51,728 nt of DNA, taken from contig JAJVHW010000071.1 in assembly GCA_022072415.1 (NCBI GenBank), forward strand, positions 1 to 51,728. Reading direction: 5' to 3'. The position numbers and the translations under genes are program-made. Positions 4,323 through 42,979 of this stretch are shown here, in pieces. The first letter of the stretch is position 1, and every line of letters starts with the position of its first letter. The stretch is from Planctomycetota bacterium (lineage in GTDB: Bacteria; Planctomycetota; JAJSAM01; JAJVHW01). The notes under the pieces were generated by a model. The model was not told the DNA's origin, made no database searches, and saw only the letters and a list, made by a program, of their open reading frames with translations.

Positions 4323-4324
4323 CG

Positions 4325-13533: not shown

Positions 13534-14382
13534 CCCGCGCCAGGCGTCGGGGACGAACGGAGCGCCCTCCGGGTCGGCGAGCGCCGCGTCGATCGTCGCG
13601 AGGATCGCGTCCTTGTCCTTCGGCAGCGTGCCGCCGATCGGGAGCCAGTTGCTCGCGTGGTTCGCGCGGAAGACCGTGCCGTCGAGCTCGAGCCCATGGA
13701 CGAACGCGCGGAGTTCCCGCGTGATCGCGGCGGGCTCCATCTCCTCGAACTCGCCGCGCATGGCCTCCTCGAAGAGCGGCGTGCCCTCGACCGGCGTCAC
13801 GACCAGCGTGGACACGAACCGCGGCTGGATCGCGTTCACGACCTGCGCCGACGCGCGCGAGTGCTCGAGCGACAGCGCGGGGCCGCCGGCGCCGAGCAGG
13901 ATCATGACGGACAGCTTCACTCCGGCCTCGGCCGGCTTCCGCGCCACGCGGATCATGGTCTCGGCGTCCACGCCCTTCACGAGCCGGCGGAGCACCTCGT
14001 CGTGCCCGCTCTCGACGCCGAGGTAGAACTGCGTGAGCCCCGCTTCGCGGAGCGCCGACATCTGCGCGACCGTGCGGACGTCGAGGGCCTGCGGCGACGC
14101 GTAGCACGAGACGCGGCGGAGCTGCGGGAAGGCGGCGCGGAGGGCGTCGAGCACCTCGTGCAGGAACTTCGGCGGAGCCATGAGCGCGTCGCCGTCGGCG
14201 AGGAAGACCTTCCGCACGCCCGGCGCCCGCTCGCGGGCCCACTCGATCTCGGCGCGGAGCTCCTCGATCCGGCGGACGCGGAAGCGCTTGTCCCGGTACA
14301 TCCCGCAGAAGCTGCACTCGTTGTACGAGCATGGTTGCGTTGCCAACCTGTCACGGTTTCCGAGGCTGAGGGGCGAAAGCAC
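13528..14382 (-). pseudogene. Radical SAM protein gene, 5' end removed by recombinase integration
   Basis: The frame encodes the iron-sulphur motif PCSYNECSFCGMY followed by KRFRVRRIEEL, FLADGDALM, YASPQALDVRT and YLGVESGHDEVLRRLVKG, a clear radical SAM barrel of the kind related to coproporphyrinogen oxidase-like enzymes. Normal members have about 20-40 residues before the first Cys, usually ending in a Gly. Here these are replaced by MLSPLSLGNRDRLATQ, encoded by the flanking recombinase element. The original start codon is therefore missing; a GTG at 14382 could still allow translation of a nearly full-length barrel. The original N-terminal part was not found elsewhere in the window. Confidence 0.75.
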
Positions 14383-15809: not shown

Positions 15810-16128
15810 GGGGATACCTCCAGGTGCGCGGTTCCCCACATTCTACGCAGCGCGACGACATGGATCCAGTCGATCCCTGAGCGATGCATGCACTCTGTCG
15901 TACCGGTGCTTCCAGCTCAACGACGCGTACCGCAGCTACGCACGGGTCGGTCGGCTTCCACATCGACACCCGCTCGCCGCGGGCGGGCTGGACGAAGGTG
16001 AAAGGTGGAGGCAAAGGCGCATCTGACACGGTTGCGCGCGGACCCGATGAGGTAGAGCTTCCGCTGGCTGGGGGATCTGCAGTCCTGGTCGAACTAGCGA
16101 CTCGCGACGTAGAGCGCGACGCCTACTC
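15810..16128. other. Intergenic region upstream of the recombinase
   Basis: About 320 bases. The first 30 hold the recombinase leader with its ribosome binding site on the minus strand. Short frames on both strands have no recognisable domain and are not called. No strong hairpin or terminator was seen. Confidence 0.5.
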
Positions 16129-17323: not shown

Positions 17324-18418
17324 ATGCCGAATCTTGATGGGTTCGACCCCGGAGCAGATGCAGAGCACATCTACTTGCTGACGCAGGGCCGCCGGGCCAT
17401 CGAGGAGTGGCGAGCGATCCACCCGCAGACGCGGCTCTGTCTGAGCGGTGCGGAGTTCAGCGGCGCCGACCTGAGTGGCCTGAACTTGCGCGGCGCGTAT
17501 CTGTTCGACGCGCGACTTGGGGGCGCGAACCTACGTGGTGCTGACCTCAGCGGCGCGAAGCTGATTCGCGCAGATCTTTGCGCCGTGGACCTGCACGGTG
17601 CGAACTTGTGCCACGCATCGCTACGAGGTGCCAACTTGAGTGCCGCCCACCTTGACAACGTCACCTTCATCGACACCAACCTGGCTGATGCCGACTTCAA
17701 CGGCGCGAGCCTTCAGGACACGAGATTCCTCCGGGTCGACCTTGGCGGTGCTCGCAACTTGTCCGCCGTGTTCCACGTCGGCCCCTCATTTGTCAGTGCG
17801 CAAACGCTTGCGCTGTCGAGGGGGAGGCTGCCCCGCGAGTTTCTCCGCGGCTGCGGTCTCCAAGACTGGGAGATCATCGCGGTGCAGCTCTGCGATCCGG
17901 ACTTGACTCAAGAAGAGATTCAGGAGGTGAACCTTCAGGTCGGCGCGGCGCGCCTCGCGCACCCGATTCAGACGCGAGCGGTGTTCATCTCGTACACGCA
18001 CGCAGACTCTGCAGCTGTTGAACGTATCGAGTCTGCGCTTCAGTCGCATGGCGTACGCGTGTGGCGCGACGTTCGTGATCTCAGGGCGGGGCCTCTGGAC
18101 GAGCAAGTCCGCAATGCGATGCAGGAACGTGTAGCCGTCGTAGTTCTATCCAGGACCTCACTGAGGAGCGACTGGGTCGCCGCCGAGGTGGCGCATGCGT
18201 GTGCAATAGAGAAGGAGCAAGGTCGCCACGTCCTCTGCCCGATCGCGCTGGATTCATCGTGGACGGAGGGCACCCTCGGCATGGGGCTGACGCACGCGCT
18301 GAAGAGGTACGTAGTGCTCGACTTCGCCGCGTTGGCCGGTGGGTTCGAGGCGTCGGATGCGACGCTAAGGCTCGTCGAGGGACTGCGCCGCTACTATGGG
18401 CCGACACGCGCGTCATGA
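17324..18418 (+). CDS. Pentapeptide-repeat protein with C-terminal TIR domain
   Basis: 364 residues, ATG preceded by AGGAGG. Residues about 40-130 are pentapeptide repeats of the A(D/N)LxG type (GADLSGLNLRGAYL, GANLRGADLSGAKL, GANLCHASLRGANLS), forming a right-handed beta helix. A linker leads to a TIR domain from about residue 220: TRAVFISYTHADSAAVERI, VRVWRDVRDLRAG, VVVLSRTSLRSDWVAAEVAHA. The last segment contains the Glu used by NAD-degrading TIR domains. Such fusions are common in bacteria and are suspected immunity effectors. The gene ends convergently against an IS1182 remnant, overlapping its stop by a few bases. Confidence 0.9.
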   Translation: MPNLDGFDPGADAEHIYLLTQGRRAIEEWRAIHPQTRLCLSGAEFSGADLSGLNLRGAYLFDARLGGANLRGADLSGAKLIRADLCAVDLHGANLCHASLRGANLSAAHLDNVTFIDTNLADADFNGASLQDTRFLRVDLGGARNLSAVFHVGPSFVSAQTLALSRGRLPREFLRGCGLQDWEIIAVQLCDPDLTQEEIQEVNLQVGAARLAHPIQTRAVFISYTHADSAAVERIESALQSHGVRVWRDVRDLRAGPLDEQVRNAMQERVAVVVLSRTSLRSDWVAAEVAHACAIEKEQGRHVLCPIALDSSWTEGTLGMGLTHALKRYVVLDFAALAGGFEASDATLRLVEGLRRYYGPTRAS

Positions 18419-25206: not shown

Positions 25207-25362
25207 GTGCAACTTTCACCAGAAGACATCAAAGAGCTACAGGGGATCTGGAGACAGATATTTGACGAGACGATCTCAGACGCCGAGGCGCAGGTCTGTG
25301 GAAACAACCTGGTCGAGCTGTTCCTCGTGCTCGCAGAACACAACAAACGAACATCGCCATGA
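25207..25362 (+). CDS. Small recombinase-associated protein, copy 1
   Basis: 51 residues from a GTG, ending in a TGA that overlaps the recombinase ATG as ATGA. Sequence highlights are LSPEDIKELQGIWRQIF and NNLVELFLVLAEH. It aligns along its whole length with the 49-residue product at 27168-27317 (LTEEDISEYQRIWKEVF, SWLVELFLILASH), which shows selection for the protein. Similar short helical proteins are often found just before serine recombinases in mobile elements, as far as I recall. A role as recombination directionality or regulatory factor is inferred. Confidence 0.75.
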   Translation: MQLSPEDIKELQGIWRQIFDETISDAEAQVCGNNLVELFLVLAEHNKRTSP

Positions 25363-26993
25363 AGTACTTCGTGTATTGTCGAAAGTCGATGGAGTCAGAA
25401 GATCGCCAGGTTCTCTCGATCGAGAGCCAGCGTCGCGAGGTTGAGCGCCTCGTCCCCGGCGGCGCGGTGATCGAGGTGCTCGAAGAGGCACGGAGCGCCA
25501 AGGCGCCCGGCCGTCCTGTGTTTGACGCCATGGTACGCAGAATTGAGCGGGGTGAGGCGCGCGGCATAGTGGCCTGGCACCCCGATCGCCTGGCTCGCAA
25601 CGCGATCGACGGCGGGCGCATCATCCACATGCTCGACACGGGGAAGATGTCGGACCTGAAGTTCGCATCGTTCAGCTTCGAGAACAATCCGCAGGGCAAG
25701 TTCATGCTCTCCATCATCTTCGGTTACTCAAAGTACTACGTAGACAGCCTCGCTCAGAACGTGAAGCGAGGGATGAGGACGAAGGCGCAGAATGGTTGGC
25801 TTCCCAACATGCCGCCGACTGGCTATCTCAACGACAAGTCGAGCGGCACGATCATCGCAGACCCAGAGCGATTCCCGGTCGTTCGTCGAATGTGGGACCT
25901 GATGCTCTCCGGAGTCTGGTCGCCTCGACAGATCCGCGACCGCGCGGAACGTGAGTGGGGTTTCGCCACGATCCAGCGGAGGTCTGCTGGCGGAAAGGCT
26001 CTCGCCCTCTCCGCCGTCTACAAACTGCTGTCGAACCCATTCTACGCCGGGATCGTGACCTGGGCTGGCGCGACCTACCCCGGGAAGCACCCGGCCATGG
26101 TGACGATCGCGGAGTTCGAGAAGGTGCAGGCTCTCCTCGGCCGCCCTGGGCGGCCCTCTCCCCAGAAGCACGAGTTCGCCTACATGGGACTGATCCGGTG
26201 CGGAGAGTGTGGTCTCTCGATCACCGCATCACAGCGGCGCAACCGACACGGCACGCTCTACACCCACTACCACTGCACAAAGCGGCGACTCGACGTCACT
26301 TGTCGCCAGCCGGTGATCCAGGAGCACGAGCTGGAGGCGCAGATCGTCTCACATCTGGAGAAGCTCCATATCGATACCAGGTTCGAGCAGTGGGTGCTGG
26401 CCCGGCTCCACCGAGCGGTGTCGGAGGTCGGTGGGCAGGAGGAGGCCGCTCGACGCGCGGCCTCGGAACGGCTTCCGCGTCTTGTCAGGCAGCTCGACAA
26501 TCTGACGACGCTGCGCCTGCGTGATCTTGTGACCGACTCAGAGTTCGTCAGGGAGCGGGCTCGCATTGAACGCGAGCGTCTCGCTGCCGAGCAGGCAGTC
26601 CGCATGCAGGAAACGGGGCAAGCGTTGTTTGAACCCTGCCGGACCGTGATTCAGTTCAGTATGCATGCTGTTTCGGCGTTCCGTCGGGCGAACGCGCGCC
26701 AAAGAAGGCTGATCGTGGAAATCGTTGGTTTGAACCCTAGTCTGACCGACAAGAAGCTTCGTGTTGACGCGAGAAAACCGTTCACGAGGCTGTCGAAAAC
26801 GCCCTCGCTTCCTCAACTGTGCACCCTCGTAGAGGAACTTAGAACCTATTGCACTGATTCTGCTAACCACAAGTCAATAGCGGCGATGCGCCAGATCATG
26901 ATCGACACCGGGCTCTGGCAGGAACCTCCGCCTCTGGAGTCGGCGAAGCCGAAACGCAAGTCGCGGGCGTATGCTCCTCCTAGAGCTACTTAG
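25359..26993 (+). CDS. Large serine recombinase
   Basis: 544 residues. Catalytic Ser10 lies in YCRKSMESEDRQ, with further resolvase motifs ARSAKAPGRPVFDAM, WHPDRLARNAIDGG and FGYSKYYVDSLAQNVKRG. The recombinase domain (LPNMPPTGYLND) is followed by a zinc ribbon (CGECGLSITASQRR...YHCTKR) and a coiled coil. It is not closely similar to the first recombinase in this window. Its last 58 codons and the 120 bases that follow recur as a diverged copy at 30192-30490. It is translationally coupled to the small protein before it and probably mobilises the module at 22.6-27.1 kb. Confidence 0.9.
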   Translation: MKYFVYCRKSMESEDRQVLSIESQRREVERLVPGGAVIEVLEEARSAKAPGRPVFDAMVRRIERGEARGIVAWHPDRLARNAIDGGRIIHMLDTGKMSDLKFASFSFENNPQGKFMLSIIFGYSKYYVDSLAQNVKRGMRTKAQNGWLPNMPPTGYLNDKSSGTIIADPERFPVVRRMWDLMLSGVWSPRQIRDRAEREWGFATIQRRSAGGKALALSAVYKLLSNPFYAGIVTWAGATYPGKHPAMVTIAEFEKVQALLGRPGRPSPQKHEFAYMGLIRCGECGLSITASQRRNRHGTLYTHYHCTKRRLDVTCRQPVIQEHELEAQIVSHLEKLHIDTRFEQWVLARLHRAVSEVGGQEEAARRAASERLPRLVRQLDNLTTLRLRDLVTDSEFVRERARIERERLAAEQAVRMQETGQALFEPCRTVIQFSMHAVSAFRRANARQRRLIVEIVGLNPSLTDKKLRVDARKPFTRLSKTPSLPQLCTLVEELRTYCTDSANHKSIAAMRQIMIDTGLWQEPPPLESAKPKRKSRAYAPPRAT

Positions 26994-27333: not shown

Positions 27334-30021
27334 CTAGTCAGCATCCCCCGACATGAACTCCTCAGCTCGATACTTGCTGAACTTCAGTTTGTACGTTGGA
27401 GTCCCACCCTCCAAGTACTGGAGTGCTTCCTTGCTGAGGGGCTCATGATCCATCGAGCCAGAGTACACAATACGCCCTCGTGTTGCATCGGCCTCAAGGA
27501 TCGTGAACATATCCGTGTCGGTCGCTACCGCGACGCTTGAGTTATGGGTCGTGAAGATGAATTGGCGCTGGTCCTTGCCTTGCCTCACGCGCTTGCAAAC
27601 ATCGTCCCAAATGGAACGGAGGTCAAGAGAGTCCTCAGGCTGGTCTATGACAATTGGCGCTGTGCCGTCACTCAGGGCGATCAGAAGCATTGCTGTACAC
27701 TTCTGACCAATAGATAGCCGATCCAGTTGCTCGAACTTCCCAACGACATTGTAGCTGATCTCCGGACGATCCCTCGGCACCCCCATGTACTCAAGCGCCA
27801 GCAACTGTTCAAACGTGTATGTTTCGGTGAGGAACTCAGCGAGGGTGCGCATCCTGCCCCCGTCGATGCCGGCGCGTTGCGCAACCTCCTCAAGGTACTT
27901 CCCAGGAGTGCCTAGTGCATGCGACACGATCGCGCGCATGAAGTCTCCAGAGTCCACTCCGCCGCAGAGCTTCTCGATATCGTGGTCTTTAAGGTACGAA
28001 CCGCGCTTCAAAGCGGTCAGACGCGCACGAAACTCAGCACGGTTTGTTGCCTCGTGGATCTCTACCTTGAGGCGACCGCCTGTATCGGCAGCGATCTTCT
28101 CGCAGCGGGTCTTGCGCTCGGCTGTGTAGTTCTGGTAAGCCTTCCGATGCGCTTCAACGGTGGCCTTTCTCTTCTGCCCGATGGCCGGAAGCTCACCGGC
28201 ACGGTCCTTGGCCGCTGCGAGTTTCCGCTCAAGCCCCTCGAACTCAGCGAACAGCTTCGCGCGCTTCTGAGCCAGCACTCTCGAATCACCACCACGGGAT
28301 TGGATAGCCGAATCGTACGCCTTCTTCTCCTCCTCGAATGTGGGCCGCCATCTCGCGTACTCGTCTACCGCCCGCGCCTCCACCTCGGCGATCTCTCCGT
28401 CCAGTGCTTCGAAGTGACCCGACACGGAAAAGCGAACCTCGGCAACGTATCCGAGAGCACGTCGGACGGCAGGATCGTCCTGAAGAGCCTCTGGCACCGG
28501 CGGCGTCCCAATTGTAGTTGCGCTTTTCTTGGCCTCGGCTACTCGCTGTCTAATAGTCCGAATCGCCTCTAGCTGCTGCTTAAGAACAAGATCCTTGGCC
28601 GCAACTGCAGCGAACTTGCTCAGGATGGGGTCCTTGAGAGACACATCCAGTTTGGTAATCTCCTCCCGCACCGTGACAACCTGTCGCTCAACGTCCTTCG
28701 CTTCAATCGACGCGCGCATACACTCAGCCAACGACTGGTCGAGGTTCTTGAGTTCCCTCTCTCGCTCGGCAATCTCGAACTGGTAGGAACGAAAGTCGAA
28801 GAACGTGTCAATGAACGCCAACTGAGAGTCCCGGTCCTCTGCGATCTTGAGAATCTCGTTCTGACTGAGAAAGAAGACAGGAAATGCACGCGCCAAGTCT
28901 CTGGTCTGACCTCCATCGTATGGATGACCGCCGGCCGGATCGTAGGTGCGCTTTACGGTAAACGGCTTCCCGGTCTCATCTACTAGCGTCACCTCGACGG
29001 CACCATAGAGCTCGAGTCGCGCACGGAGCTTCGCATCATGATCGTTCGCAAGATCTGCATTGCTGGGTGCCTGATCCAGAGCGAAGCGGAGGAACTCGAT
29101 GATCAACGACTTCCCGGTACCTTTCGCTCCAAGAATACTGTTAAGACCATCATGGAATACGATACTTTCGCCGTCCAGAAAGCCGCCCGTGATGCGAAGG
29201 CTCTGTATCCTTGGATACGAGTAGGTCTTGAGCTCGAAGTCTTGGCGAATGCGCACGTCGGGGTCGGCGAGGCACTGCTTAAGGGAGTCGATGTCGATAC
29301 GGTCCATCTTGAAAAATGCGCATCGACTCCCGATCGTCGCAAGGGAGTGTGTTCCCGGTGCGCCGGGATTGTCCGAGGCTTGGTAGACCGCGAGCTTTCG
29401 CCGGTACTCAGCGTCAGTGCCGTCGAGATAGTCAACCGCCCGGTGGTGCTGCGCTCGCCTCGCTGCATCTTGAAAGTCCGCAGCCTCCAAGGCGGTGACG
29501 GCTGGGTGGCGGATCAGATCAGTTCGCTGCTTTCCTGACATGTCGCGAAGCACGCCCCGGCTCGAATTCGCATGAGCCAGGATGGCGACGCCTCCGCGGT
29601 CCCGAATGATAGCCACCACTTCCATGACTTCTTTGCTGGCGACCGTATCCAACTTCCCGTACTGGCTGGTCTCAAAACCCAGGACCGACAGTAGGCTCTC
29701 CACTTCGGCGCGCCCGTGCATCGGGTCAAGAAGAGCGATCACGTGTATGCCGTCCTTGCCGCCTCGGCAAGTGATCTCCACGCCGGGAAAGACTGTGAGC
29801 GTCGTACCGACGGCTGCCTTCTTCACTTCATCGATCCATGCGGCACTATTGTGATCCGTAACCGCTACTCCCTGGAGGCCCGCTGCAAGGCAGGCTTGGA
29901 CGAACGCTGCAGGCGTGACGGACTTGTCATCGAAGTCAGCCGATCCCGGGCTGTGGACGTGGAGATCGAGCTTACGGAAGACAAGGCCTGCGCTCTTGGG
30001 TTTGCTAGGTTTGGTGCTCAT
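27334..30021 (-). CDS. PHP-domain and SMC-like AAA ATPase (TrlF type)
   Basis: 895 residues from the ATG at 30021. The N-terminal PHP phosphoesterase domain shows KLDLHVHSPGS, GVAVTDHNSAAW, VFPGVEIT and ILAHANSSRG, all with metal ligands present. The ATPase has Walker A ILGAKGTGKSLI near residue 300, long coiled coils (430-650), SIGQKCTAML, Walker B PIVIDQPEDSLD and a TTHNSSVAVATD segment. The architecture matches TrlF-family proteins of mobile elements and defence islands, thought to sense and cleave nucleic acid. A longer frame to 30066 is open. The gene stands alone in reverse orientation between two copies of a recombinase 3' end, so it looks like inserted cargo. Confidence 0.85.
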   Translation of the reverse strand: MSTKPSKPKSAGLVFRKLDLHVHSPGSADFDDKSVTPAAFVQACLAAGLQGVAVTDHNSAAWIDEVKKAAVGTTLTVFPGVEITCRGGKDGIHVIALLDPMHGRAEVESLLSVLGFETSQYGKLDTVASKEVMEVVAIIRDRGGVAILAHANSSRGVLRDMSGKQRTDLIRHPAVTALEAADFQDAARRAQHHRAVDYLDGTDAEYRRKLAVYQASDNPGAPGTHSLATIGSRCAFFKMDRIDIDSLKQCLADPDVRIRQDFELKTYSYPRIQSLRITGGFLDGESIVFHDGLNSILGAKGTGKSLIIEFLRFALDQAPSNADLANDHDAKLRARLELYGAVEVTLVDETGKPFTVKRTYDPAGGHPYDGGQTRDLARAFPVFFLSQNEILKIAEDRDSQLAFIDTFFDFRSYQFEIAERERELKNLDQSLAECMRASIEAKDVERQVVTVREEITKLDVSLKDPILSKFAAVAAKDLVLKQQLEAIRTIRQRVAEAKKSATTIGTPPVPEALQDDPAVRRALGYVAEVRFSVSGHFEALDGEIAEVEARAVDEYARWRPTFEEEKKAYDSAIQSRGGDSRVLAQKRAKLFAEFEGLERKLAAAKDRAGELPAIGQKRKATVEAHRKAYQNYTAERKTRCEKIAADTGGRLKVEIHEATNRAEFRARLTALKRGSYLKDHDIEKLCGGVDSGDFMRAIVSHALGTPGKYLEEVAQRAGIDGGRMRTLAEFLTETYTFEQLLALEYMGVPRDRPEISYNVVGKFEQLDRLSIGQKCTAMLLIALSDGTAPIVIDQPEDSLDLRSIWDDVCKRVRQGKDQRQFIFTTHNSSVAVATDTDMFTILEADATRGRIVYSGSMDHEPLSKEALQYLEGGTPTYKLKFSKYRAEEFMSGDAD

Positions 30022-30191
30022 ATCTTCGTGCCTGTTACCGCCAACTCTACCACGACAGCGCCCCACTGCAAACTCGGGTTGCTGTCGCCGGCTGCGGCAA
30101 GTTCCTGCTGCTATCGGCCCGAACTGGCGTGCGCTAAAATCGCCCCGAACCCTGAAAGGACGGGTGGGGTTAGGTTCGAACCGATTCTCGC

Positions 30192-30616: not shown

Positions 30617-31957
30617 ATGCGAATCTTCCTGAGCCACAGTAGTCGGCTCAAGCCGTTGATACGTGAAATCAGAGGGCATCTTCCTCACTTCCTAGCTGTT
30701 TGGATCGACGAGGATGCCCTTGTCTTCGGAGACAATGTCCCAGCGTCGATTCGCGACGCAATCAGCTCGAAGACAGACTACGTGCTACTGTTCCTGGATC
30801 GCAGCGCTGTCGAGTCGGAGTGGGTCCGCCAGGAGGTCGCTTGGGCTCTGGAGGCGGAGAAGCAACAGGCCCGTACGATTCTGCTGCCGATAACGGTAGA
30901 GCAGCAGCCGATTGAAGGGCTCGGGAACATCGAGTTGGCGAACCGGAAGCACCTCGATCTGCGAGATCTATACGCGGCAACCGTGCACGCCTTTTCAGCA
31001 CTGCTCTCTGAGCAGTTGTTCGCTCTCGTCTGCCGAGATGTTGAACGACTACATCGCCCAGTCTCTCCGTCACTCTCAAGAGCGATTGCAGAGTCTGATG
31101 AGCTTCTGCGGACACACGCACGACTCGTTCACAAGGTAGTGTTTCCGCACCGCCGTGGAAATCCAATCTCGCGAGACGTTCTGCGGGAGATCGTAAACAC
31201 TCACAGCAAGGCGAACCTCAGCCCCGCTGAGTTTGACCAACTCATTCTCGGGGTAGTACAGCGCAATCTCCTCCCTGGGCTCAACTATGATGGGGAGGTC
31301 GCCTTCTTGGTGGAAGAGCACGCGCAGTGGAAGGGTGAGGTACAGGCGGAGAGGAAGCAGCGTGTCGGGCTCAAGGCGATTAACCTAATCGAGAATGGAA
31401 TGAAAGTGCTGTTCGACGCAGGTTCCGCGTCGGAAGCTGTGATCCGGCTCTTGTGCAAACGGATACAGACTCGTACCATTACACGAATCAGTTTGGCCAC
31501 GAATTCGGTGAACATTGCGGACATGGTGTCAGACTGTTGTGTCGCCATGGGGTTTGACGATGACTACTCGGCGGTCTCCTTGTTCGTTCCTGGTGGTCGT
31601 GTACGACCAAACACACAGGCAATCGTCGCGGTTCAACAGTCAGGGCCGACGGACATCGCGATCCTCGCCAGTTTACTCGGAGGCTTCGACATCGTCTTCG
31701 TCGGGGTCAATGGAATTCACGCCGAGAGCGGGCTGACAACACACTCAAACGCAGAAACACGGAACAAGCTGGAGATCTTGGCCGCGAGCTCGAGGCGGTA
31801 CATTCTCGGCGACTGCTCTAAGATCGGGATCTCGCTGGAGCATCGATTCGCCAGCTTCGAGGACGACATCAACCTGATCGTCGATCGGGATGACGCCTGT
31901 CCCGGGCTGGCCTCGTTGTTGGAGCGACACTCTGCACGAATCATCCTCGCGCCGTAG
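30617..31957 (+). CDS. TIR-domain protein with a DeoR-type sensor domain
   Basis: 446 residues. The N-terminal TIR domain reads RIFLSHSSRLKPLIREI, AVWIDEDALVFG, YVLLFLDRSAVESEWVRQEVAWA, with the Glu expected for NAD cleavage. The middle (RGNPISRDVLREIVNTHSK...) is helical and may be a winged helix. From about residue 255 the sequence follows the sugar-phosphate sensor domain of DeoR regulators: VLFDAGSASEAVIRLL, ISLATNSVNIADMV, LFVPGGRVRPN, DIVFVGVNGIHAESGLTTHS, RRYILGDCSKIGI. I infer an immunity effector that couples a metabolite or nucleotide sensor to NAD depletion. It is a single gene with its own leader and a weak GGAG before the ATG. Confidence 0.8.
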   Translation: MRIFLSHSSRLKPLIREIRGHLPHFLAVWIDEDALVFGDNVPASIRDAISSKTDYVLLFLDRSAVESEWVRQEVAWALEAEKQQARTILLPITVEQQPIEGLGNIELANRKHLDLRDLYAATVHAFSALLSEQLFALVCRDVERLHRPVSPSLSRAIAESDELLRTHARLVHKVVFPHRRGNPISRDVLREIVNTHSKANLSPAEFDQLILGVVQRNLLPGLNYDGEVAFLVEEHAQWKGEVQAERKQRVGLKAINLIENGMKVLFDAGSASEAVIRLLCKRIQTRTITRISLATNSVNIADMVSDCCVAMGFDDDYSAVSLFVPGGRVRPNTQAIVAVQQSGPTDIAILASLLGGFDIVFVGVNGIHAESGLTTHSNAETRNKLEILAASSRRYILGDCSKIGISLEHRFASFEDDINLIVDRDDACPGLASLLERHSARIILAP

Positions 31958-34595: not shown

Positions 34596-35198
34596 ATGCA
34601 GGAACCCGGCATCGCAAGTACGAGGAGGTTGCTCGAGCTCGTGCTCGGCAAGCAGGCGGCGCGGGGCCTCTCGTCGCTTGAGCGTCTTCGGGATCTTCGG
34701 ACGGCCGGCGTCAGCGAGCTCACCGGAGCCTTCGGGCTCTCGGACGCCGCCGCCGTGAAGGCCGGGGCGCTCGTGGAACTCTTCCATCGCATCGACGGCG
34801 AGCGTCTGGAACGAGGGGTCGCTCTCAGCGGGTCGGCATCGGTGTGCCGGCACGCGGTGTCGCTCGGCCTGCGCGACCTTCAGGTCGAGCAGTTCCGGAC
34901 TCTGCTGCTCGACGGGAAGCACCGGGTCATCGACGACCATCGCGTCTCTCAGTGGACGTTGACCTCCTCGCCGGTGCATCCGCGCGAGGTCTTCCATCAC
35001 GCGATCCGGTGCAAGGCCGCGGCGATAGTGCTCCTGCACAGCCATCCGTCCGGCGACCCGTCGCCGTCGGCGGACGACCTGGAGATCACGAGGAGGCTCG
35101 TCCAGGTCGGTGAGCTGGTCGGTATCCGCGTCGTCGATCACGTCATCGTCGGGCAGGGGGCGTTCTGTTCCTTGGCCGACAGGGGGCCGCTCTCGTGA
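34596..35198 (+). CDS. radC: RadC-like JAB-domain protein
   Basis: 200 residues, ATG behind GGAGG. It contains a helix-hairpin-helix-like N-terminus and the JAB metalloprotease-like motif of RadC: EQFRTLLLDGKHRVIDDHRVS, then ILLHSHPSGDPSPSADDLEITRRL and IRVVDHVIVG. The HSHPSGD...S..D metal-site residues are all present (AAIVLLHSHPSG). Stand-alone RadC genes are very common on integrative elements and plasmids; the molecular role is unresolved. It is the first gene of an overlapping set with the sigma factor. Confidence 0.93.
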   Translation: MQEPGIASTRRLLELVLGKQAARGLSSLERLRDLRTAGVSELTGAFGLSDAAAVKAGALVELFHRIDGERLERGVALSGSASVCRHAVSLGLRDLQVEQFRTLLLDGKHRVIDDHRVSQWTLTSSPVHPREVFHHAIRCKAAAIVLLHSHPSGDPSPSADDLEITRRLVQVGELVGIRVVDHVIVGQGAFCSLADRGPLS

Positions 35199-35939: not shown

Positions 35940-36905
35940 ATGGCTCACTGCATCTCTGCATCCGATGGCGTCGCGACCGGTCGGGGCATCCGGCCCTGGC
36001 ACGGTCTCGGCGTCACGCTTCCGGATCTGCTCACGCCCGCCCAGGCGATCGAGCACGCACATCTCGGGTGGAGCGTCTCGCTCCACCCGTTGTGTGTCGC
36101 GCATCCGGACTTCGCCGCGCTTCCCGTCCCCGCACGCGCCGTCGTCCGCATGGACACGCAGGACGTGCTCGGCGTCGTGGGAGAGCGGTACGTCCCGGTC
36201 CAGAACACCGACCTCGTCGCCGTCCTCGACGCCATTGTGGAGAACGGGGCGAAGATTGACACCGCCGGATCGCTGCTTGGCGGCCGGATCGTCTGGTTCG
36301 CGGCGCTCCTCACCGAATTCGAGGCCGCGGGCGAGCGGCACCAGGACTACCTCGTCATCTCGCACGGACACGACGGCTCTCGGGCCGTCACCGTGCGCCG
36401 GACGACGGTGCGCGTCGTCTGCTGGAACACTCTTCAGGCGCACGACCGGCAGGCGGGGGCATCCTTCGCCGTCCGGCACACCGAGTCCGCCCAGGAGCGG
36501 ATCGGCGCGATCGGACAACTGGTTGCCGCGGGGGCACAGACGCGGGCGCGGTTCCAGGCCGCCGCCTCTCGCATGGCTCGCGCGCGCCTTTCGGAACGCG
36601 AGCAGCTCGAGTTCGTTCTGAACAGCCTGGGCCTGGATCCGCACCTGGAAGTGAAGTCCATCAAGAGGAAGATCGAGGCGGCACGAGCGGCGCTCGCCTG
36701 GGAGAGATCTCAGACCGGGGCACCGGAGTCTGTGTGGGCCGCCTTCCAGGGCGTCACCCACTACCTCGCGCACGAGACGGCGTCGAAGGGCTCGAGCTCG
36801 CAGGGCGGCAGGGAGCGACGTCTCGTCTCAACGATGGTGGGCGGCGAGCGGTCGAAGATCGCCTCGCGCTCGTTCACCGTCGCAGCACAGCTTGCGGGCG
36901 TGTAG
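35940..36905 (+). CDS. DUF932 phage/plasmid protein
   Basis: 321 residues; AAAGG lies about seven bases before the ATG. Matches the DUF932 (TIGR03299-like) family: GIRPWHGLGVTLPDLLTPAQAIEHAHLGW, VVGERYVPVQNTDLVAVLDAIVENG, VRRTTVRVVCWNTLQAH, and FAVRHTESAQERI. These proteins are conserved on plasmids and phages, where they are often among the most highly expressed early genes, with unknown function. It is separated from the next gene by two tandem hairpins. Confidence 0.88.
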   Translation: MAHCISASDGVATGRGIRPWHGLGVTLPDLLTPAQAIEHAHLGWSVSLHPLCVAHPDFAALPVPARAVVRMDTQDVLGVVGERYVPVQNTDLVAVLDAIVENGAKIDTAGSLLGGRIVWFAALLTEFEAAGERHQDYLVISHGHDGSRAVTVRRTTVRVVCWNTLQAHDRQAGASFAVRHTESAQERIGAIGQLVAAGAQTRARFQAAASRMARARLSEREQLEFVLNSLGLDPHLEVKSIKRKIEAARAALAWERSQTGAPESVWAAFQGVTHYLAHETASKGSSSQGGRERRLVSTMVGGERSKIASRSFTVAAQLAGV

Positions 36906-36956: not shown

Positions 36957-36988
36957 GGGTCCGAAGCTCAACACTTCGGACCCATTTT
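36957..36988 (+). terminator. Intrinsic terminator-like hairpin just before the ATPase gene
   Basis: A perfect 10-bp stem (GGGTCCGAAG at 36957-36966 with CTTCGGACCC at 36974-36983) is followed by ATTTTC. A smaller hairpin, CTCCGG/CCGGAG, precedes it at 36931-36948. It ends four bases before the ATPase ATG, so it could terminate DUF932 transcription or act as an attenuator. Confidence 0.75.
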
Positions 36989-36992
36989 CGTC

Positions 36993-38198
36993 ATGAACAA
37001 CGATCCACTCATCCTGGGGCGAACCAACTGGCGCGAGCCGTACCGGCGGCGTCTCTTCGGGCTGCGCGCGGGAGACCGACTTCAGCACGTCTACATCATC
37101 GGCCAGACCGGCACCGGGAAGACGACCCTCATGGCCAACCTGATGTGGCAGGACCTGAAGCTCGGCCGCGGCTTCGCTTTCCTCGATCCGCACGGTGACG
37201 CCGTGGAGCGGCTTGTCGCGCAGATCCCATCGGATCGCCGGGCGAGCGTCATCTACCTTGACGTCCCGAACCCGGACTGCGAGTTCGGTTTCAACCCGCT
37301 CGAGTCCGTCGCGTTGGAGCAGCGGGCGTTCGCCGCCTCCGGCATCATCGAAGCCTTCAGGAGCGTCTGGGGCACGACCTGGGGGCCGCGCCTCGAACAC
37401 ATCCTGCGCAACGCGCTGCTCACCCTGCTCGACCAACCCGAGGCGACGTTGGCCGACATCTCGCGCCTCTTCACAGATGATGCGTACCTGAAGGCGTGTC
37501 TCCCACAGATCACGCACCCGACCAACCTCGAATTCTGGACCAGGGAGTTCGCCAAGTACCCGTACCGCTATCGAGTCGAGGCCATAGCGCCGGTGCAGAA
37601 CAAGCTCGGTGCTTTCCTGGCTCAGCCCCCACTTTTCCGATTGCTCACGCGGCCGCGCTCTGGTTACAACCTTCGACAGGTGTTCGACGAACGAGGGGTG
37701 TTGCTCGTGAACCTCGCGAAAGGAAGGATCGGCGGAGATGGCGCGGCCCTGCTCGGGTCGCTGATCGTCTCGCGCCTCGGGCTTGTTGGCCTCTCCCGGC
37801 AGGATCTGCCGGAGGAGGCTCGCGTCCCGTTCTTCATCTACCTCGACGAGTTCCATACCTTCACGACGACGGCGCTCTCGGGGATGCTCTCGGAACTGCG
37901 CAAGTACCGGCTCGGTCTCGTCCTCGCACACCAGTTCTCGGCGCAGCTTGAGACGGAGGTCCGCGACGCCGTTTTCGGGAACGTGGGCACACTCATCGTG
38001 TTCCGCGTGGGACCGGACGATGCCAGGGTACTCCACCGGCAGTTCTCGCCCGAGTTCCAAGAGTTGGATCTCGTGAACCTGCCGGACCACGACATCTACG
38101 TGCGGCTGCTGGTGCAAGGCGCACCGGCGCGGCCGTTCTCAGCGACCACGCTGCCGCCTCTCTGGACCCAGACATGCAGCGAAAGTAGCCATGGATAA
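36993..38198 (+). CDS. VirD4/HerA-like DNA-translocating ATPase 1, C-terminus replaced
   Basis: 401 residues. Walker A is IIGQTGTGKTTLMANL at about residue 30. GFAFLDPHGDAVERLV follows, Walker B is PFFIYLDEFHTFTT near 285, and a QxSAQLETEVRDAVFGN motor motif comes next. This is the type IV coupling protein/TraM-recognition ATPase family, here soluble without membrane segments. The last residues (ARPFSATTL, then PPLWTQTCSESSHG) differ from the tail ARPFSATTLAPLWRKAAEEW that lies 1.25 kb downstream, so the original C-terminus was displaced by the toxin cassette. No ribosome binding site is visible behind the terminator hairpin. Confidence 0.85.
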   Translation: MNNDPLILGRTNWREPYRRRLFGLRAGDRLQHVYIIGQTGTGKTTLMANLMWQDLKLGRGFAFLDPHGDAVERLVAQIPSDRRASVIYLDVPNPDCEFGFNPLESVALEQRAFAASGIIEAFRSVWGTTWGPRLEHILRNALLTLLDQPEATLADISRLFTDDAYLKACLPQITHPTNLEFWTREFAKYPYRYRVEAIAPVQNKLGAFLAQPPLFRLLTRPRSGYNLRQVFDERGVLLVNLAKGRIGGDGAALLGSLIVSRLGLVGLSRQDLPEEARVPFFIYLDEFHTFTTTALSGMLSELRKYRLGLVLAHQFSAQLETEVRDAVFGNVGTLIVFRVGPDDARVLHRQFSPEFQELDLVNLPDHDIYVRLLVQGAPARPFSATTLPPLWTQTCSESSHG

Positions 38199-39189
38199 CC
38201 CGCACATCGAAACAAGCAACCGACTGCTTGCGATCTATCTCCAACTGGTACGCGAGTTGGTCAAGTGGCCGACGAGCGATGCTGACCTAGGGCAACGCCA
38301 CGCCACACTAGTTCGCGCTCGCGGTGCCGTCGAGGCACGGCGGCGATCGAGATACGCGTCGTTAGATTGGGCAAGCAGTCGCGGCGGTCAGGTGGTGGTC
38401 GAGGACGAGGGAAGAACAACTCCCACTGACTCCGTCCGGATTGAATCGGACCATGCGCGCGCCATCGGCTGGCTGGCTGACGTAGAAAAGAGACTTCGAA
38501 TACTTCCATTCGCGCTTCGCGGCAACCGGGCCGCGGAGTCCATCACGTCGAGATACAGAGAATTGACTCCTCGGCTTCGTGACAGAGCATATGTCCGGAG
38601 GCTCCGACGGTGCCTCCACGAGCTTCGTGCGCTCTTGCACGAGTGGCGCGCCGCGTGGCTGGCGTACGTGGAGGCGGGCGGCAAGCCACAGTTCTCGTCG
38701 TTGGGCGGTAGAGCCGCGACTCAGCATGACATCGAACAGATGCATACGCGCGGCATCGACGAGATCGACGATCTGAGCAGGATCGCCGATCGATTGGAAT
38801 CCACAGGAAAGGGCGCGCTGAGCTCCCAGGAGATCGCGCAAAGGGACGGGCTGCCGCTGCTGAACGGTCATCGTGCCGTAGCCGCGGAGTCCAAGTTCAC
38901 GGCCTATGCACTCAATGAGCGGCATCCACACGGAGCCGCAAAGGCACGTGGTTTTCGTGAGGGACTCGGATTTACGCCCAAGAACTTCTCCGATCTGAGA
39001 GAGCAGATACTGAAGTCTCTCCCGCAATCTGGCGCGCAGCTAGGGAGTGTCGATGACTATGGAGTCAGGTTCTTCGTTGATACACAAGTCACGGGGCCAA
39101 CGGGACGGACTTTGACAGTCAGGAGTGCTTGGTTGTACCAAGACGGATCTGAACGGCCGCGGTTGATTTCCATGTTCCCGAAGTGGTAA
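38191..39189 (+). CDS. DUF6883-domain predicted toxin
   Basis: 332 residues; the ATG overlaps the ATPase stop. The C-terminal 105 residues match DUF6883: AAESKFTAYALNERHPHGAAKARGF, LGFTPKNFSDLREQILKSL, DDYGVRFFVDTQVTGPTGRTLTVRSAW, RLISMFP. This domain occurs at the ends of polymorphic toxins, usually next to a DUF4926 gene, as here. The N-terminal 220 residues are helical with no recognised domain (RRRSRYASLDWASS, ELRALLHEWRAAWLAY) and might be a delivery region. The cassette has lower GC than its flanks. The activity of DUF6883 is not known to me; a nuclease is one proposal. Confidence 0.75.
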   Translation: MDNPHIETSNRLLAIYLQLVRELVKWPTSDADLGQRHATLVRARGAVEARRRSRYASLDWASSRGGQVVVEDEGRTTPTDSVRIESDHARAIGWLADVEKRLRILPFALRGNRAAESITSRYRELTPRLRDRAYVRRLRRCLHELRALLHEWRAAWLAYVEAGGKPQFSSLGGRAATQHDIEQMHTRGIDEIDDLSRIADRLESTGKGALSSQEIAQRDGLPLLNGHRAVAAESKFTAYALNERHPHGAAKARGFREGLGFTPKNFSDLREQILKSLPQSGAQLGSVDDYGVRFFVDTQVTGPTGRTLTVRSAWLYQDGSERPRLISMFPKW

Positions 39190-39198
39190 GGTGATAAA

Positions 39199-39405
39199 AT
39201 GAGTATTCTAGAGTTCAGCAAGGTCCGCCTGAAGGTGGATCGACCCGCCTTGGGTTTGCACATAGGAGACGTAGGAGTCGTCGTGGAGGTACATCAGGTA
39301 CCACGTGTGGCATATGAGGTCGAGTTCATCGACGAGATGGGGCGATCTGATGGTCCAGGCTTGGCGGCCTTCGAGGAGTCGGAGTTGGAGGTCGTTCCAG
39401 GGTAG
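39199..39405 (+). CDS. DUF4926 predicted immunity protein
   Basis: 68 residues, nine bases after the toxin stop, with AAGGTG before the ATG. The sequence FSKVRLKVDRPALGLHIGDVGVVVEVHQVPRVAYEVEFIDE fits DUF4926, a small beta-barrel family that is the usual neighbour of DUF6883 toxins. It presumably binds and neutralises the toxin. Its leader is AT-rich compared with the surroundings, consistent with recent acquisition. Confidence 0.8.
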   Translation: MSILEFSKVRLKVDRPALGLHIGDVGVVVEVHQVPRVAYEVEFIDEMGRSDGPGLAAFEESELEVVPG

Positions 39406-39411
39406 GTAGCC

Positions 39412-39492
39412 GCACACGCGCGGCCGTTTTCGGCGACGACACTCGCACCACTGTGGAGAAAGGCAGCGGAGGAATGGCGCAACCAGAACTGA
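39412..39492 (+). pseudogene. Displaced 3' end of ATPase 1
   Basis: An orphan stretch of 26 codons translating to ARPFSATTLAPLWRKAAEEW plus six more residues and a TGA. The first 45 bases align with the current ATPase 1 3' end at 38121-38165 (34 of 45 identical). The stop lies inside the next gene, which starts at 39474, the normal tight overlap of an operon. Before the cassette arrived, ATPase 1 probably ended here. Confidence 0.85.
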
Positions 39493-39977
39493 TCTCTCAC
39501 TGGAACCAGCTCATCGACGGACTTGATCACTCGTCGGACGCCTTCTACAAGGCCCTTGAGGCCAAGATCGAAGAGCGGAGGATGCCGAACGTCACCGTTG
39601 ACCGGACCGAGTTTGCAGAGGGCGGGCTGTTTTCCGCTCGGCGGACCTACCTGCGCGTGCGGCGCTATGAGCTGACGTATCACATTTGTGCCGCACCCTT
39701 CGGGAAGAACTACTTCTTCTTCTCCGCCTGGCTGCACGGCAACACCGGCTGCCTCGCCATCCTGGCCAGCATCCCGGGCGTCGGACTGCTGATCCGACTC
39801 CTGATCCGCCCCCTCACCTTTTACTACATCGACAGCACGATCATGTTCCAGTCCGCCGTCCACGAGTTGCTCATGGCCGAGATCGACGGGCTGACGAAGG
39901 CGCAGAACCTCCATCCGCTCTCGGGTGAACAGCGCAAGCCGATCCTCTCCGAGTTCTACGCCAAGCCCAAGCGATGA
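39474..39977 (+). CDS. Membrane-associated protein between the two ATPases
   Basis: 167 residues from the ATG behind GGAGG; the reading frame upstream belongs to the displaced ATPase end. The central part is hydrophobic (NYFFFSAWLHGNTGCLAILASIPGVGLLIRLLIR) with probably one or two membrane segments. It is preceded by a charged region (FSARRTYLRVRRYELTYHICAAPFG) and followed by a helical tail. No family was recognised. The stop overlaps the ATG of ATPase 2 as ATGA. It may anchor the ATPases to the membrane. Confidence 0.7.
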   Translation: MAQPELISHWNQLIDGLDHSSDAFYKALEAKIEERRMPNVTVDRTEFAEGGLFSARRTYLRVRRYELTYHICAAPFGKNYFFFSAWLHGNTGCLAILASIPGVGLLIRLLIRPLTFYYIDSTIMFQSAVHELLMAEIDGLTKAQNLHPLSGEQRKPILSEFYAKPKR

Positions 39978-42900
39978 CCTCGCTTTCCGAGCATCTGGCC
40001 TCCCAGTTCTACGCCTGGGAGCGGCGCGGGCGGGGCTGGCAGGTGTACGGGTATCCGGTCGTGCTGGAGCCGGCCTTCCGTCCCTTCGTCGGGTACCTTC
40101 CTCTCCACGCCGCAGGTCATGACGACGGACGGACAGCAGGGCTCGCAGAGTCGTTGTGGAGCTCGGTCCGGGGCAAGGTGCCCGCTTCAGATCAGCCTGC
40201 CATGCTGGAGTTCGAAGAGCCGGAGCCGGAACGGGATACCCAGGACGAGGAGTTCGTCGAGCTTCAGATCCGCCTCCCGTCCGCGGTGGACATCACGCCG
40301 GAGCTCTCGGAGCTGCTCCTCTTAAACCTGCTCGCATCACAGCAGCGGATCGGGTTTGAGCTGCTCGGTGTCGGTCCAGAGATCATCCTCCAGTTCGTCG
40401 TACCCGAGTCGCACACGGGCGACCTCCAAGCGGCGATCGAGACCTACGTACCGGACATCGTGGTTGCTTCCCGACCAACGCTCCGCGCCGCCTGGGAGAC
40501 GAACGTCGCCGATGAGACTGTCGTCGCGGACTTCGGCCTCTCGAACGAGTTTCTCCTCCCGCTCGCGACGCCCCGCTCGTTCCGCACTGACCCCCTTCTT
40601 GGCTTCCTCTCCACGCTCGACGGGTTGGGCGAGCACGAGATCGGTCTCGTGCAGGTGCTCTTCGAGCCGACGCGGCAGCCCTGGGGGCGGACAGCGGTGG
40701 CCTGGCTCACCGGCACCGACGGCGCGCCGATCTTCCCAGACTCGAAGAGCCTCCTCGCCGGTGCTGCGGAGAAGTTCAGCCGTCCGGTGGTTGCGGCGGT
40801 CGTCCGGGTCGCCGCGCGAGCCGAGGATCGCGAACGCGCCTGGGCCGTCGTGCGGCGCCTCGGAGGGGCACTCGCGCAGTTCTCGGGGGCCAACGATCTG
40901 ATGCCGCTCGCCGCCGAGGGCTACGACCCCTTCGACCAGGAGCAGGACCTCCTCCGGCGGCGCACCCATCGTGGCGGGATACTGCTTTCGACCGCGGAGC
41001 TGGCCGGACTCGTCCACGTGCCCGCGTCGTCGGTCCGGACGGAGCAGGTCCGGGCTTCGCCGGCGAAGACGAAGGCGGCGCCCGGCTCCGTCGCGTCCGG
41101 TGAGATCTGCCTCGGCGAGAACACGCACCGCGGTCGGTCGGTCCGCGTCCTCCTGCCGCTTCCAACGCGGCTGCGCCACACGCACATCATCGGCGCCACC
41201 GGCACCGGCAAGTCCACCCTCGTCAAGAGTCTCATCCGGCAAGACCTCGAGGGCGGGCGGGGGATCGGGCTCCTCGACCCGCATGGCGACCTCGCCGACG
41301 AGGTGCTCGGGCTTGTGCCGGAGGACCGTCTCGGCGAGGTCGTACTCTTCGATCCCTCCGACGAGGAGTTCCCGGTCGGGTTCAACGTTCTGGCGGCGCA
41401 CTCGGACCGGGAGCGGAATCTCCTCGCGTCGGACCTGACCGCCATCTTCCGCCGGTTCTCGACGACCTGGGGCGATCAGATGACGGCCGTCATGTCCTCG
41501 GCCGTGATGGCGCTCCTGGAGTGCGAGGGCGGCGGCACGCTCCTCGATCTGCGGCGGTTCCTGGGTGATCGCGAGTTCCGCGAGGCGAAGCTCGCGAGCG
41601 TCCACGATCCGCTCCTCCTCTCCTTCTGGCGCGAGGAGTTCCCGCGGCTTCCCGGGGCGAAGTCGCAACTCCCCATCACGACACGCCTCGATGCCTTTCT
41701 ACGGCCGAAGTCCATCCGCCACATGGTGGCCCAGAACAAGAGCCGCCTCGACCTCCGGCGCCTCATGGACACAGGCGGCATCTTCATCGCGAAGCTCTCG
41801 CAGGGGGCCATCGGCGAGGAGAACGCACATCTCCTCGGCTCCCTCCTCGTCGCCAAGCTGCACCAGCTCGCCATGAGCCGGGAGCAGGTGCCCGAGACGC
41901 AGCGCACCCCGTTCCTCCTGTATCTCGACGAGTTCCAGCACTTCGTAACGCCCTCGCTCACCGGACTCCTGACCGGGGCGCGGAAGTACGGCGTGGGGCT
42001 CGTGCTCGCGCACCAAGAGCTCCGCCAGCTCTCCGACGCCGAGGTCCGCGGCGCGGTGCTTGCGAACCCGGCGACCCGGGTCTGCTTCCGCCTCGGCGAT
42101 GAGGACGCGCGCCTGCTCGCCAGCGGTTTCTCCTCCTTCGAGGCGACCGACCTCGTGAATCTCGGCGTCGGCGACGCCGTCTGCCGGGTGGGGCAGTCGG
42201 GCCACGACTTCAACCTGAGGGTGCCGGAGCCAGCGGTCGCGGACGTGCAACGATCAACAGCCCGGCGCGATGTGGTGCGCGAAGGAACACGGACGCGGTT
42301 CGGGACGCCCCGGACCGAGGTCGAGCGGATGATCGCCGCCTTCTGGTCTGTGGCGCTCCGCACTGACCCGACCCGGGTCGCGCCGGAGCGTGGTCCGGTC
42401 GCGACGCCGGTCGAGCCCGTAGCCGTTGAGCTGCCGCAACTGGCGAAGCACCCACCTGGGCTGGAGCCGGCCACACCCGGACGGGGCGGATCGCAACACA
42501 AGTACCTGCAAGGCATGGTCAAGCAGGCAGGCGAGGCCAAGGGGTACAGAGCCACGATCGAGGCGACCGTTGGAGAGCGCGGCAGAGCAGACGTACTTCT
42601 TGAGCGCGGGGACGAGCGGATCGCGGTCGAGATCTCGATCACGACATCGGCGGATCACGAAGTCGGCAACCTGAAAAAGTGCCTGGAAGCGGGTGTCTCG
42701 CGCGTGGCCGTTCTCTCCCCGGTGCCTCCCGTCTTGCAGCGCATCCAGGAAGCGGCACTTGCCGCGCTGCCCGAGGCCGACTTCACGCGGATCGTCTTCA
42801 CGAGCGCGGAGGAGTTCGTGGCCGCACTGGCGGAACCTGCCGCGCCACCGACGAAGACGGTTCGGGGGTACAAGGTGAAGACGCAGGTGCACGTCACTGA

Positions 42901-42979
42901 CGTCGCCGCGGCGAAGGAGCGGCAGGACGTCCTCGCGCAGACGATCGCCGGGGCGCTTAGGCGTCTGAAGCGGCGGTGA
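39974..42979 (+). CDS. VirD4/HerA-like ATPase 2 with C-terminal PD-(D/E)xK-like domain
   Basis: 1001 residues. The N-terminal 390 form a domain seen in such proteins (FVELQIRLPSAVDITPELSELLL). The motor has Walker A IIGATGTGKSTLVKSL near 410, GIGLLDPHGDLADEV, Walker B PFLLYLDEFQHFV near 650, and GLVLAHQELRQLSDAEVRGAVLANP. After a Pro-rich linker, the C-terminal 140 residues contain GRADVLLERGDERIAVEIS, the D...ExS pattern of PD-(D/E)xK nucleases, then a helix/strand series. It belongs with the first ATPase and the membrane protein to a DNA-transfer or DNA-processing machine. No relaxase or T4SS channel gene is in the window. Confidence 0.85.
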   Translation: MTSLSEHLASQFYAWERRGRGWQVYGYPVVLEPAFRPFVGYLPLHAAGHDDGRTAGLAESLWSSVRGKVPASDQPAMLEFEEPEPERDTQDEEFVELQIRLPSAVDITPELSELLLLNLLASQQRIGFELLGVGPEIILQFVVPESHTGDLQAAIETYVPDIVVASRPTLRAAWETNVADETVVADFGLSNEFLLPLATPRSFRTDPLLGFLSTLDGLGEHEIGLVQVLFEPTRQPWGRTAVAWLTGTDGAPIFPDSKSLLAGAAEKFSRPVVAAVVRVAARAEDRERAWAVVRRLGGALAQFSGANDLMPLAAEGYDPFDQEQDLLRRRTHRGGILLSTAELAGLVHVPASSVRTEQVRASPAKTKAAPGSVASGEICLGENTHRGRSVRVLLPLPTRLRHTHIIGATGTGKSTLVKSLIRQDLEGGRGIGLLDPHGDLADEVLGLVPEDRLGEVVLFDPSDEEFPVGFNVLAAHSDRERNLLASDLTAIFRRFSTTWGDQMTAVMSSAVMALLECEGGGTLLDLRRFLGDREFREAKLASVHDPLLLSFWREEFPRLPGAKSQLPITTRLDAFLRPKSIRHMVAQNKSRLDLRRLMDTGGIFIAKLSQGAIGEENAHLLGSLLVAKLHQLAMSREQVPETQRTPFLLYLDEFQHFVTPSLTGLLTGARKYGVGLVLAHQELRQLSDAEVRGAVLANPATRVCFRLGDEDARLLASGFSSFEATDLVNLGVGDAVCRVGQSGHDFNLRVPEPAVADVQRSTARRDVVREGTRTRFGTPRTEVERMIAAFWSVALRTDPTRVAPERGPVATPVEPVAVELPQLAKHPPGLEPATPGRGGSQHKYLQGMVKQAGEAKGYRATIEATVGERGRADVLLERGDERIAVEISITTSADHEVGNLKKCLEAGVSRVAVLSPVPPVLQRIQEAALAALPEADFTRIVFTSAEEFVAALAEPAAPPTKTVRGYKVKTQVHVTDVAAAKERQDVLAQTIAGALRRLKRR

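What the first reader, a model, noticed from the sequence alone, without database searches (positions are those of the whole stretch)
38121..39492. Toxin-immunity cassette exchanged into the 3' end of a DNA-translocating ATPase gene
A DUF6883/DUF4926 pair lies exactly between the current end of ATPase 1 and an orphan copy of its original last 26 codons. The two ends share 34 of 45 bases. This is the layout left by homologous exchange of polymorphic toxin tails, but here the host gene is a VirD4-like ATPase rather than a secreted filament. It suggests that conjugation-type elements carry swappable toxins at this site, perhaps delivered with or policing DNA transfer.
Basis: partly seen in the sequence, partly recalled or inferred. 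Interest (0 to 1): 0.75.

Follow-up and report, generated by a model that had tools for sequence, protein, structure and literature searches.

The report
Toxin-immunity cassette behind a DNA-transfer ATPase
In an uncultured Planctomycetota bacterium, a two-gene toxin-and-antidote cassette has been spliced in right behind a DNA-pump gene, leaving the stub of an older version of that gene on its far side; the splice is real, but it is a single known case and the toxin being carried by the pump is a guess.

Summary
ATPase1 (36993-38198) is followed by a toxin gene (38191-39189, C-terminal DUF6883) and a DUF4926 gene (39199-39405), then by an untranslated copy of an ATPase1 3' end (39406-39492) overlapping the start of the next gene. 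The two ends match over 50 nt (76%). Over 13 shared codons, 8 of 9 differences are at third positions and 7 of 8 changed codons are silent, so both evolved as ends of working ATPase1 genes: an exchange scar, not a target-site duplication. The cassette has foreign codon usage and is absent from syntenic relatives (13-bp gap in L044; RadC-sigma-ATPase1-orf167-ATPase2 in L041). DUF6883-DUF4926 is a recurrent pair, also found as C-terminal tips of MuF capsid and CdiA-like proteins. A modest DUF6883 model matches the tRNase toxin CdiA-CT Kp342 (6cp9), and its K, Y, H, R, S/T residues are conserved and intact here. Not supported: swapping at this site. No other ATPase1 relative carries a toxin-immunity pair there, and nothing shows export by the ATPase. 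Most likely an addiction/immunity or competition cargo captured by an integrated element.

The parts
34596..35198 (+). RadC-like gene, upstream part of the conserved block
   Evidence: PF04002 E 4e-39; syntenic RadC in L041, 55% identity
35195..35662 (+). sigma-70-like gene, conserved block
   Evidence: PF04542 E 8.5e-17; syntenic in L041, 30%
35940..36905 (+). DUF932 phage/plasmid-like gene; no counterpart found in L041
   Evidence: PF06067 E 2e-40, TIGR03299 above cut-off; no match in the relatives' loci
36993..38198 (+). ATPase1, HerA/VirD4-superfamily ATPase, 401 aa
   Evidence: PF10412 and PF01935 above gathering score; 67% identity to L003/G244, 59% to L044
38117..38166 (+). present ATPase1 3' end: upstream copy of the 50-nt imperfect direct repeat
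   Evidence: 76% identity to 39408-39457
38191..38856 (+). N-terminal 222 aa of the toxin ORF; helical, low-confidence prediction, no relatives found
   Evidence: GC3 0.685
38857..39189 (+). DUF6883 toxin domain, predicted BECR-fold RNase
   Evidence: PF21814; model pLDDT 75, Foldseek 6cp9 E 1e-4, TM 0.65; conserved K,Y,H,R,S/T
39199..39405 (+). DUF4926, putative immunity/antitoxin protein, 68 aa
   Evidence: PF16277; directly downstream of DUF6883 at 28 of 30 Planctomycetota loci
39406..39492 (+). orphan ATPase1 3' end (28 codons plus stop), without a start, overlapping the orf167 start by 19 nt
39408..39457 (+). downstream copy of the 50-nt imperfect direct repeat
39474..39977 (+). orf167, conserved partner gene of ATPase2 without a Pfam family
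39974..42979 (+). ATPase2, 1001-aa TrwB/HerA-like ATPase
   Evidence: PF10412 E 1e-8; 56% to L041, 50% to L044

Best explanation
An integrated mobile element of Planctomycetota carries a conserved block RadC-sigma-ATPase1-orf167-ATPase2. In an ancestor, ATPase1 ended in ...LAPLWRKAAEEWRNQN and overlapped the start of orf167. DNA carrying a diverged ATPase1 3' end plus a toxin-immunity cassette recombined at the shared 3'-end sequence. The new ATPase1 end and cassette now lie upstream, and the old end survives as an untranslated stub that still holds the start region of orf167 (structure shown; order of events inferred). The toxin's DUF6883 domain is most likely a BECR-fold RNase, by analogy with CdiA-CT Kp342 a tRNase, and DUF4926 is its cognate neutraliser (predicted). 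Translated with the ATPase operon, the pair most likely acts as an addiction or immunity module, or an effector in competition between elements or cells, rather than as cargo exported by the ATPases (inferred; the least certain step).
For: Repeat and coding-type divergence. GC3 0.65 in the cassette against 0.81 in the flanking ATPase/DUF932/orf167 genes, P 2e-11. Empty sites in relatives: L044 13-bp gap, L041 syntenic with no cassette, L012. ATPase1 is closest to L003/G244 (67%), whereas orf167 and ATPase2 are closest to L044 and L041 (52% and 56%) and only 30-44% to G244. DUF6883-DUF4926 pairing in 28 of 30 loci, and DUF6883 at the C-termini of MuF minor capsid proteins and of a 2700-aa CdiA-like hemagglutinin. 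Structure and active-site match to 6cp9 (PMC9086364, PMC6851490, read).
Against: Single instance: no second ATPase1 with this or another toxin pair. The 222-aa N-terminal region of the toxin has no relatives and may have a role not considered here. The DUF6883 model rests on a two-row alignment (pLDDT 75). G244's ATPase1 and orf167 are unlinked, so the incongruent identities may only show that this genome holds two elements. No toxicity data for DUF6883 or DUF4926 were found in the paper library searched.
Confidence: 0.62

Rival explanations
1. Delivered effector: the 332-aa protein is exported by the ATPase1/ATPase2 apparatus into recipients or rivals during DNA transfer, its 222-aa N-terminal region being the signal that docks on ATPase1.
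For: Same operon and 8-nt overlap with the ATPase1 stop; T4SS coupling proteins do dock toxins in the bacteria-killing T4SSs (literature listed); the extra N-terminal region is where a targeting domain could sit.
Against: No T4SS channel, VirB4 or relaxase among the window proteins scanned; most DUF6883 genes in the phylum stand alone at about 110 aa with no delivery part; no relatives of the N-terminal region beside any other ATPase.
Confidence: 0.12
2. Plain toxin-antitoxin hitch-hiker: a stand-alone DUF6883-DUF4926 pair was inserted by illegitimate recombination, and its place behind ATPase1 has no functional meaning.
For: The pair is a common, dispersed unit in Planctomycetota (29 of 294 genomes), with a second copy in this genome (C101); several copies are broken by stops, as expected of a transient cargo.
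Against: Does not by itself explain the coding-diverged second ATPase1 end, nor the fusion to a 222-aa region.
Confidence: 0.2
3. The two ATPase1 ends are att-like sites of a site-specific integrase that targets the 3' end of ATPase1, and the cassette is what remains of the element.
For: Imperfect repeats at a gene's 3' end with the end restored resemble attL/attR.
Against: No integrase in the 1.2-kb cassette; only an 11-nt exact core; third-position-biased differences point to coding history; no inverted-repeat pair frames the insert.
Confidence: 0.05
4. Assembly chimera of two strains' elements in a metagenome bin.
For: The genome is an incomplete draft (76% complete, 174 contigs).
Against: The copies share no exact match longer than 11 nt, far below assembler word lengths, and the immunity-to-stub junction has no repeat at all.
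Confidence: 0.04

Closest known systems
Orphan cdiA-CT/cdiI and rhs-CT/rhsI modules (Poole et al. 2011, PMC3150448; Zhang et al. 2012, PMC3482391)
   Same: Toxin plus immunity gene brought in together at the 3' tip of a resident gene, with a displaced fragment of that gene's coding sequence left behind the cassette.
   Different: The resident gene is a HerA/VirD4-type ATPase, not a secreted filament; the toxin is a separate ORF; the displaced fragment carries no toxin of its own.
MuF polymorphic toxins of temperate phages (PMC5576092)
   Same: DUF6883 is the C-terminal domain of phage MuF minor capsid proteins, one followed by a small DUF4926-like ORF.
   Different: No MuF domain here and no capsid genes next to it.
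CdiA-CT Kp342 BECR tRNase with CdiI (PDB 6CP9; PMC9086364, PMC6851490)
   Same: Predicted helices followed by a four-stranded sheet; K, Y, H, R and T/S residues as in the published active site; immunity gene directly downstream.
   Different: No detectable sequence similarity; substrate untested; DUF4926 is not known to be related to CdiI Kp342.
VirD4/TrwB coupling proteins and HerA ATPases
   Same: Same ATPase superfamily: PF10412 and PF01935 above cut-off.
   Different: P-loop starts about 30 residues from the N-terminus; all NCBIfam conjugation models far below cut-off; no relaxase or channel found.

Membership tests
Polymorphic toxin-immunity module | C-terminal toxin domain shared between unrelated N-terminal delivery regions | tested here: met
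   DUF6883 at the C-terminus of MuF minor capsid proteins, of a 2700-aa hemagglutinin, and stand-alone
Polymorphic toxin-immunity module | small immunity gene directly downstream | tested here: met
   DUF4926 9 nt downstream here; adjacent in 28 of 30 Planctomycetota loci
Polymorphic toxin-immunity module | recognised N-terminal trafficking domain | tested here: not met
   222-aa N-terminal region has no Pfam, NCBIfam, PHROG or PADLOC family and no relatives
Polymorphic toxin-immunity module | different toxin-immunity pairs on the same resident gene in relatives | tested here: not met
   no other pair at ATPase1 3' ends in the loci surveyed
Polymorphic toxin-immunity module | toxicity neutralised by the cognate partner | not testable with these tools
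   needs expression assays
BECR-fold RNase toxins (CdiA-CT Kp342 type) | helices followed by a four-stranded antiparallel sheet | tested here: met
   model, pLDDT 75; Foldseek 6cp9 E 1e-4, probability 1.00, TM 0.65
BECR-fold RNase toxins (CdiA-CT Kp342 type) | K, Y, H, R, T/S active-site set | tested here: met
   K13, Y17, H23, R102, S105 here; all five in 18 of 23 complete rows; matched by motif, not superposed in three dimensions
BECR-fold RNase toxins (CdiA-CT Kp342 type) | tRNA cleavage | not testable with these tools
   needs a biochemical assay
VirD4/TrwB coupling protein | coupling-protein ATPase domain above curated cut-off | tested here: inconclusive
   PF10412 26.9 bits (cut-off 20.5) over a short stretch; HerA DUF87 scores equally well
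VirD4/TrwB coupling protein | N-terminal membrane region before the ATPase domain | tested here: not met
   ATPase profiles already match from residue 30
VirD4/TrwB coupling protein | linked relaxase and secretion channel genes | tested here: not met
   none among the 28 window proteins scanned with Pfam; not every ORF was scanned

The most novel reading that the evidence does not exclude
The junction between a conjugation-type ATPase and its partner gene is an exchange port for toxin-immunity cassettes, the overlapping 3' end being both the homology for exchange and the retained start region of the next gene, and the cassette's N-terminal domain is a new adaptor that lets the DNA pump deliver the toxin.
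Probability: 0.08. Interest if true: 0.8.

Novelty: new variant of a known kind. Interest (0 to 1): 0.45.

Why it matters
It shows the polymorphic-toxin exchange scar on a gene that is not a toxin carrier, suggesting that such cassettes can use any homologous gene end as a landing place. It also gives a testable function (BECR RNase and its neutraliser) to DUF6883 and DUF4926, a pair found in about a tenth of sampled Planctomycetota genomes and in phage capsid toxins, for which no functional paper was found.

Tried and rejected
Target-site duplication: rejected, because the two ends differ almost only at silent third positions. Chance similarity: rejected. Searches for relatives of the toxin's N-terminal region in plasmids, viral contigs and 294 Planctomycetota genomes gave only chance-level hits. 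DUF6883 in phage records by tblastn: none, although three BFVD models match. ATPase1 in viral contigs: none. A search for a breakpoint inside ATPase1, by sliding identity and GC3, was inconclusive (the L003 row was read in a wrong frame and is replaced). No solved structure is detectable by sequence for DUF6883, the N-terminal region or DUF4926.

Full report
Observation. The window lies in a Planctomycetota draft genome: the genome of L003, recorded as a Planctomycetota bacterium, carries the same orf167 match at the same coordinates as G244, which the tool lists as 'same phylum'. ATPase1 occupies 36993-38198. Its stop codon is overlapped by the start of a 332-aa ORF (38191-39189) whose residues 225-331 are DUF6883 (E 6e-24); nine bases later comes a 68-aa DUF4926 gene (39199-39405, E 2.8e-12). 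Directly behind the DUF4926 stop, in the same frame, the sequence reads VAAHARPFSATTLAPLWRKAAEEWRNQN*, against ...APARPFSATTLPPLWTQTCSESSHG* at the present end of ATPase1. Its end overlaps the ATG of orf167 (39474) by 19 nt. The repeat is 50 nt at 76%, 34 of 45 in the core, against 28 of 45 for the best other place in the window.

What the repeat says about its origin. Over the 13 codons ARPFSATTL(P/A)PLW the two copies differ at 1 first, 0 second and 8 third codon positions; 7 codons are silent changes and 1 is a replacement (binomial P 0.001). A duplicated target site that decays after insertion would not show this. Both copies accumulated their differences while coding for a functional ATPase end, so they come from two ATPase1 alleles that had already diverged, and the stub has been non-coding for a short time by comparison. 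The stub also still holds the purine-rich stretch directly before the orf167 start, a plausible reason why it was kept (inference).

Relatives. ATPase1, orf167 and ATPase2 follow one another in six loci. In three nothing lies between ATPase1 and orf167: L044 (13-bp gap), L041 (141 bp; RadC and sigma genes also syntenic upstream; its ATPase1 is frameshifted) and L012 (a gap of about 77 bp). Two hold unrelated genes: L010 (348 aa, no family) and L042 (285 aa on the opposite strand, weak PEP-CTERM). The sixth is the window. In other relatives ATPase1 is followed by RadC, methylase or unrelated genes, or orf167-ATPase2 occurs without ATPase1. A profile search of 45 loci with ATPase1 relatives (some of them different fetches of the same place) found neither DUF6883 nor DUF4926. 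The site therefore takes inserts, but toxin swapping there is not shown. ATPase1 is closest to G244 (67%), while orf167 and ATPase2 are closest to L044 and L041 and only 30-44% identical to G244, which fits separate histories, with the caution that G244 may hold two different elements.

Foreignness. Third-position G+C is 0.85 in DUF932, 0.76-0.87 in ATPase1, 0.84-0.85 in orf167 and ATPase2, but 0.685, 0.586 and 0.65 in the toxin's N-terminal region, the DUF6883 part and DUF4926; cassette against neighbours P 2e-11.

The cassette. PF21814 occurs in 29 of 294 sampled Planctomycetota genomes. In 28 of 30 examined loci a DUF4926 gene follows directly on the same strand, and most DUF6883 proteins are about 110 aa and stand alone. 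Annotated stand-alone pairs also occur on Rubrobacter, Stanieria and Gloeothece plasmids, with a DUF4926 gene in the same position on a Rahnella plasmid. DUF6883 is the C-terminal tip of phage MuF minor capsid proteins, one with a small DUF4926-like ORF behind it, and of a 2700-aa hemagglutinin. That is the distribution of a polymorphic toxin domain (PMC3482391, PMC5576092).

Mechanism. An AlphaFold2 model of the domain (pLDDT 75, two-row alignment) has three helices followed by a four-stranded sheet. Its only PDB matches with E below 0.001 are the chains of 6cp9 (best E 1e-4, probability 1.00, TM 0.65), the CDI toxin-immunity complex of K. pneumoniae 342, whose toxin is a BECR-fold tRNase with K157, Y160, H170, R252 and T255 listed as active site (PMC9086364, PMC6851490). 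DUF6883 has invariant K13, Y17 and H23, and R102 with S/T105 in most members (all five in 18 of 23 complete rows); the window copy keeps all five. The best prediction is an RNase, probably a tRNase, neutralised by DUF4926. The full-length model leaves residues 23-132 below pLDDT 50, and the N-terminal 222 aa has no known relative.

Verdict. The layout is real and is best read as a toxin-immunity cassette captured through exchange of an ATPase 3' end. Swappability at this site and delivery by the ATPases remain unproven; the pair is at least as likely to serve the element as an addiction, immunity or competition module.

Noticed in passing
window 36957-36983: Perfect 10-bp hairpin GGGTCCGAA...TTCGGACCC followed by ATTTTC, just before the ATPase1 start: terminator- or attenuator-like.
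   Followed up: no
window 35940-36905: DUF932/TIGR03299 gene sits between sigma and ATPase1 here but has no match in the syntenic locus L041: a second variable insertion point in the same block.
   Followed up: partly
window 2516-33000: Mobile and defence island: TOTE-type primase (2516-7090), tyrosine integrase (7353-8714), serine recombinases (13977-15839 and 25359-26993), pentapeptide-TIR (17324-18418), PHP-SMC ATPase (27334-30066), TIR-DeoRC (30617-31957).
   Followed up: no
G000:C101:6420-6911 (L099): A second DUF6883-DUF4926 pair in the same genome, weaker scores.
   Followed up: partly
L103, L102, L045, L048, L050, L052, L053: orf167-ATPase2 is a conserved two-gene unit in Planctomycetota, Acidobacteria and two contigs listed as viral, usually without ATPase1 and near different genes; function unknown.
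   Followed up: partly
L046 (G244:C49): ATPase2 is broken there: its N-terminal and C-terminal parts lie on opposite strands, as after an inversion.
   Followed up: no
window 39974-42979, last ~200 codons: ATPase2 has a long C-terminal extension that reads like a nuclease-type fold (AVEISITTSADHEVGNLKKC), without a Pfam match.
   Followed up: no
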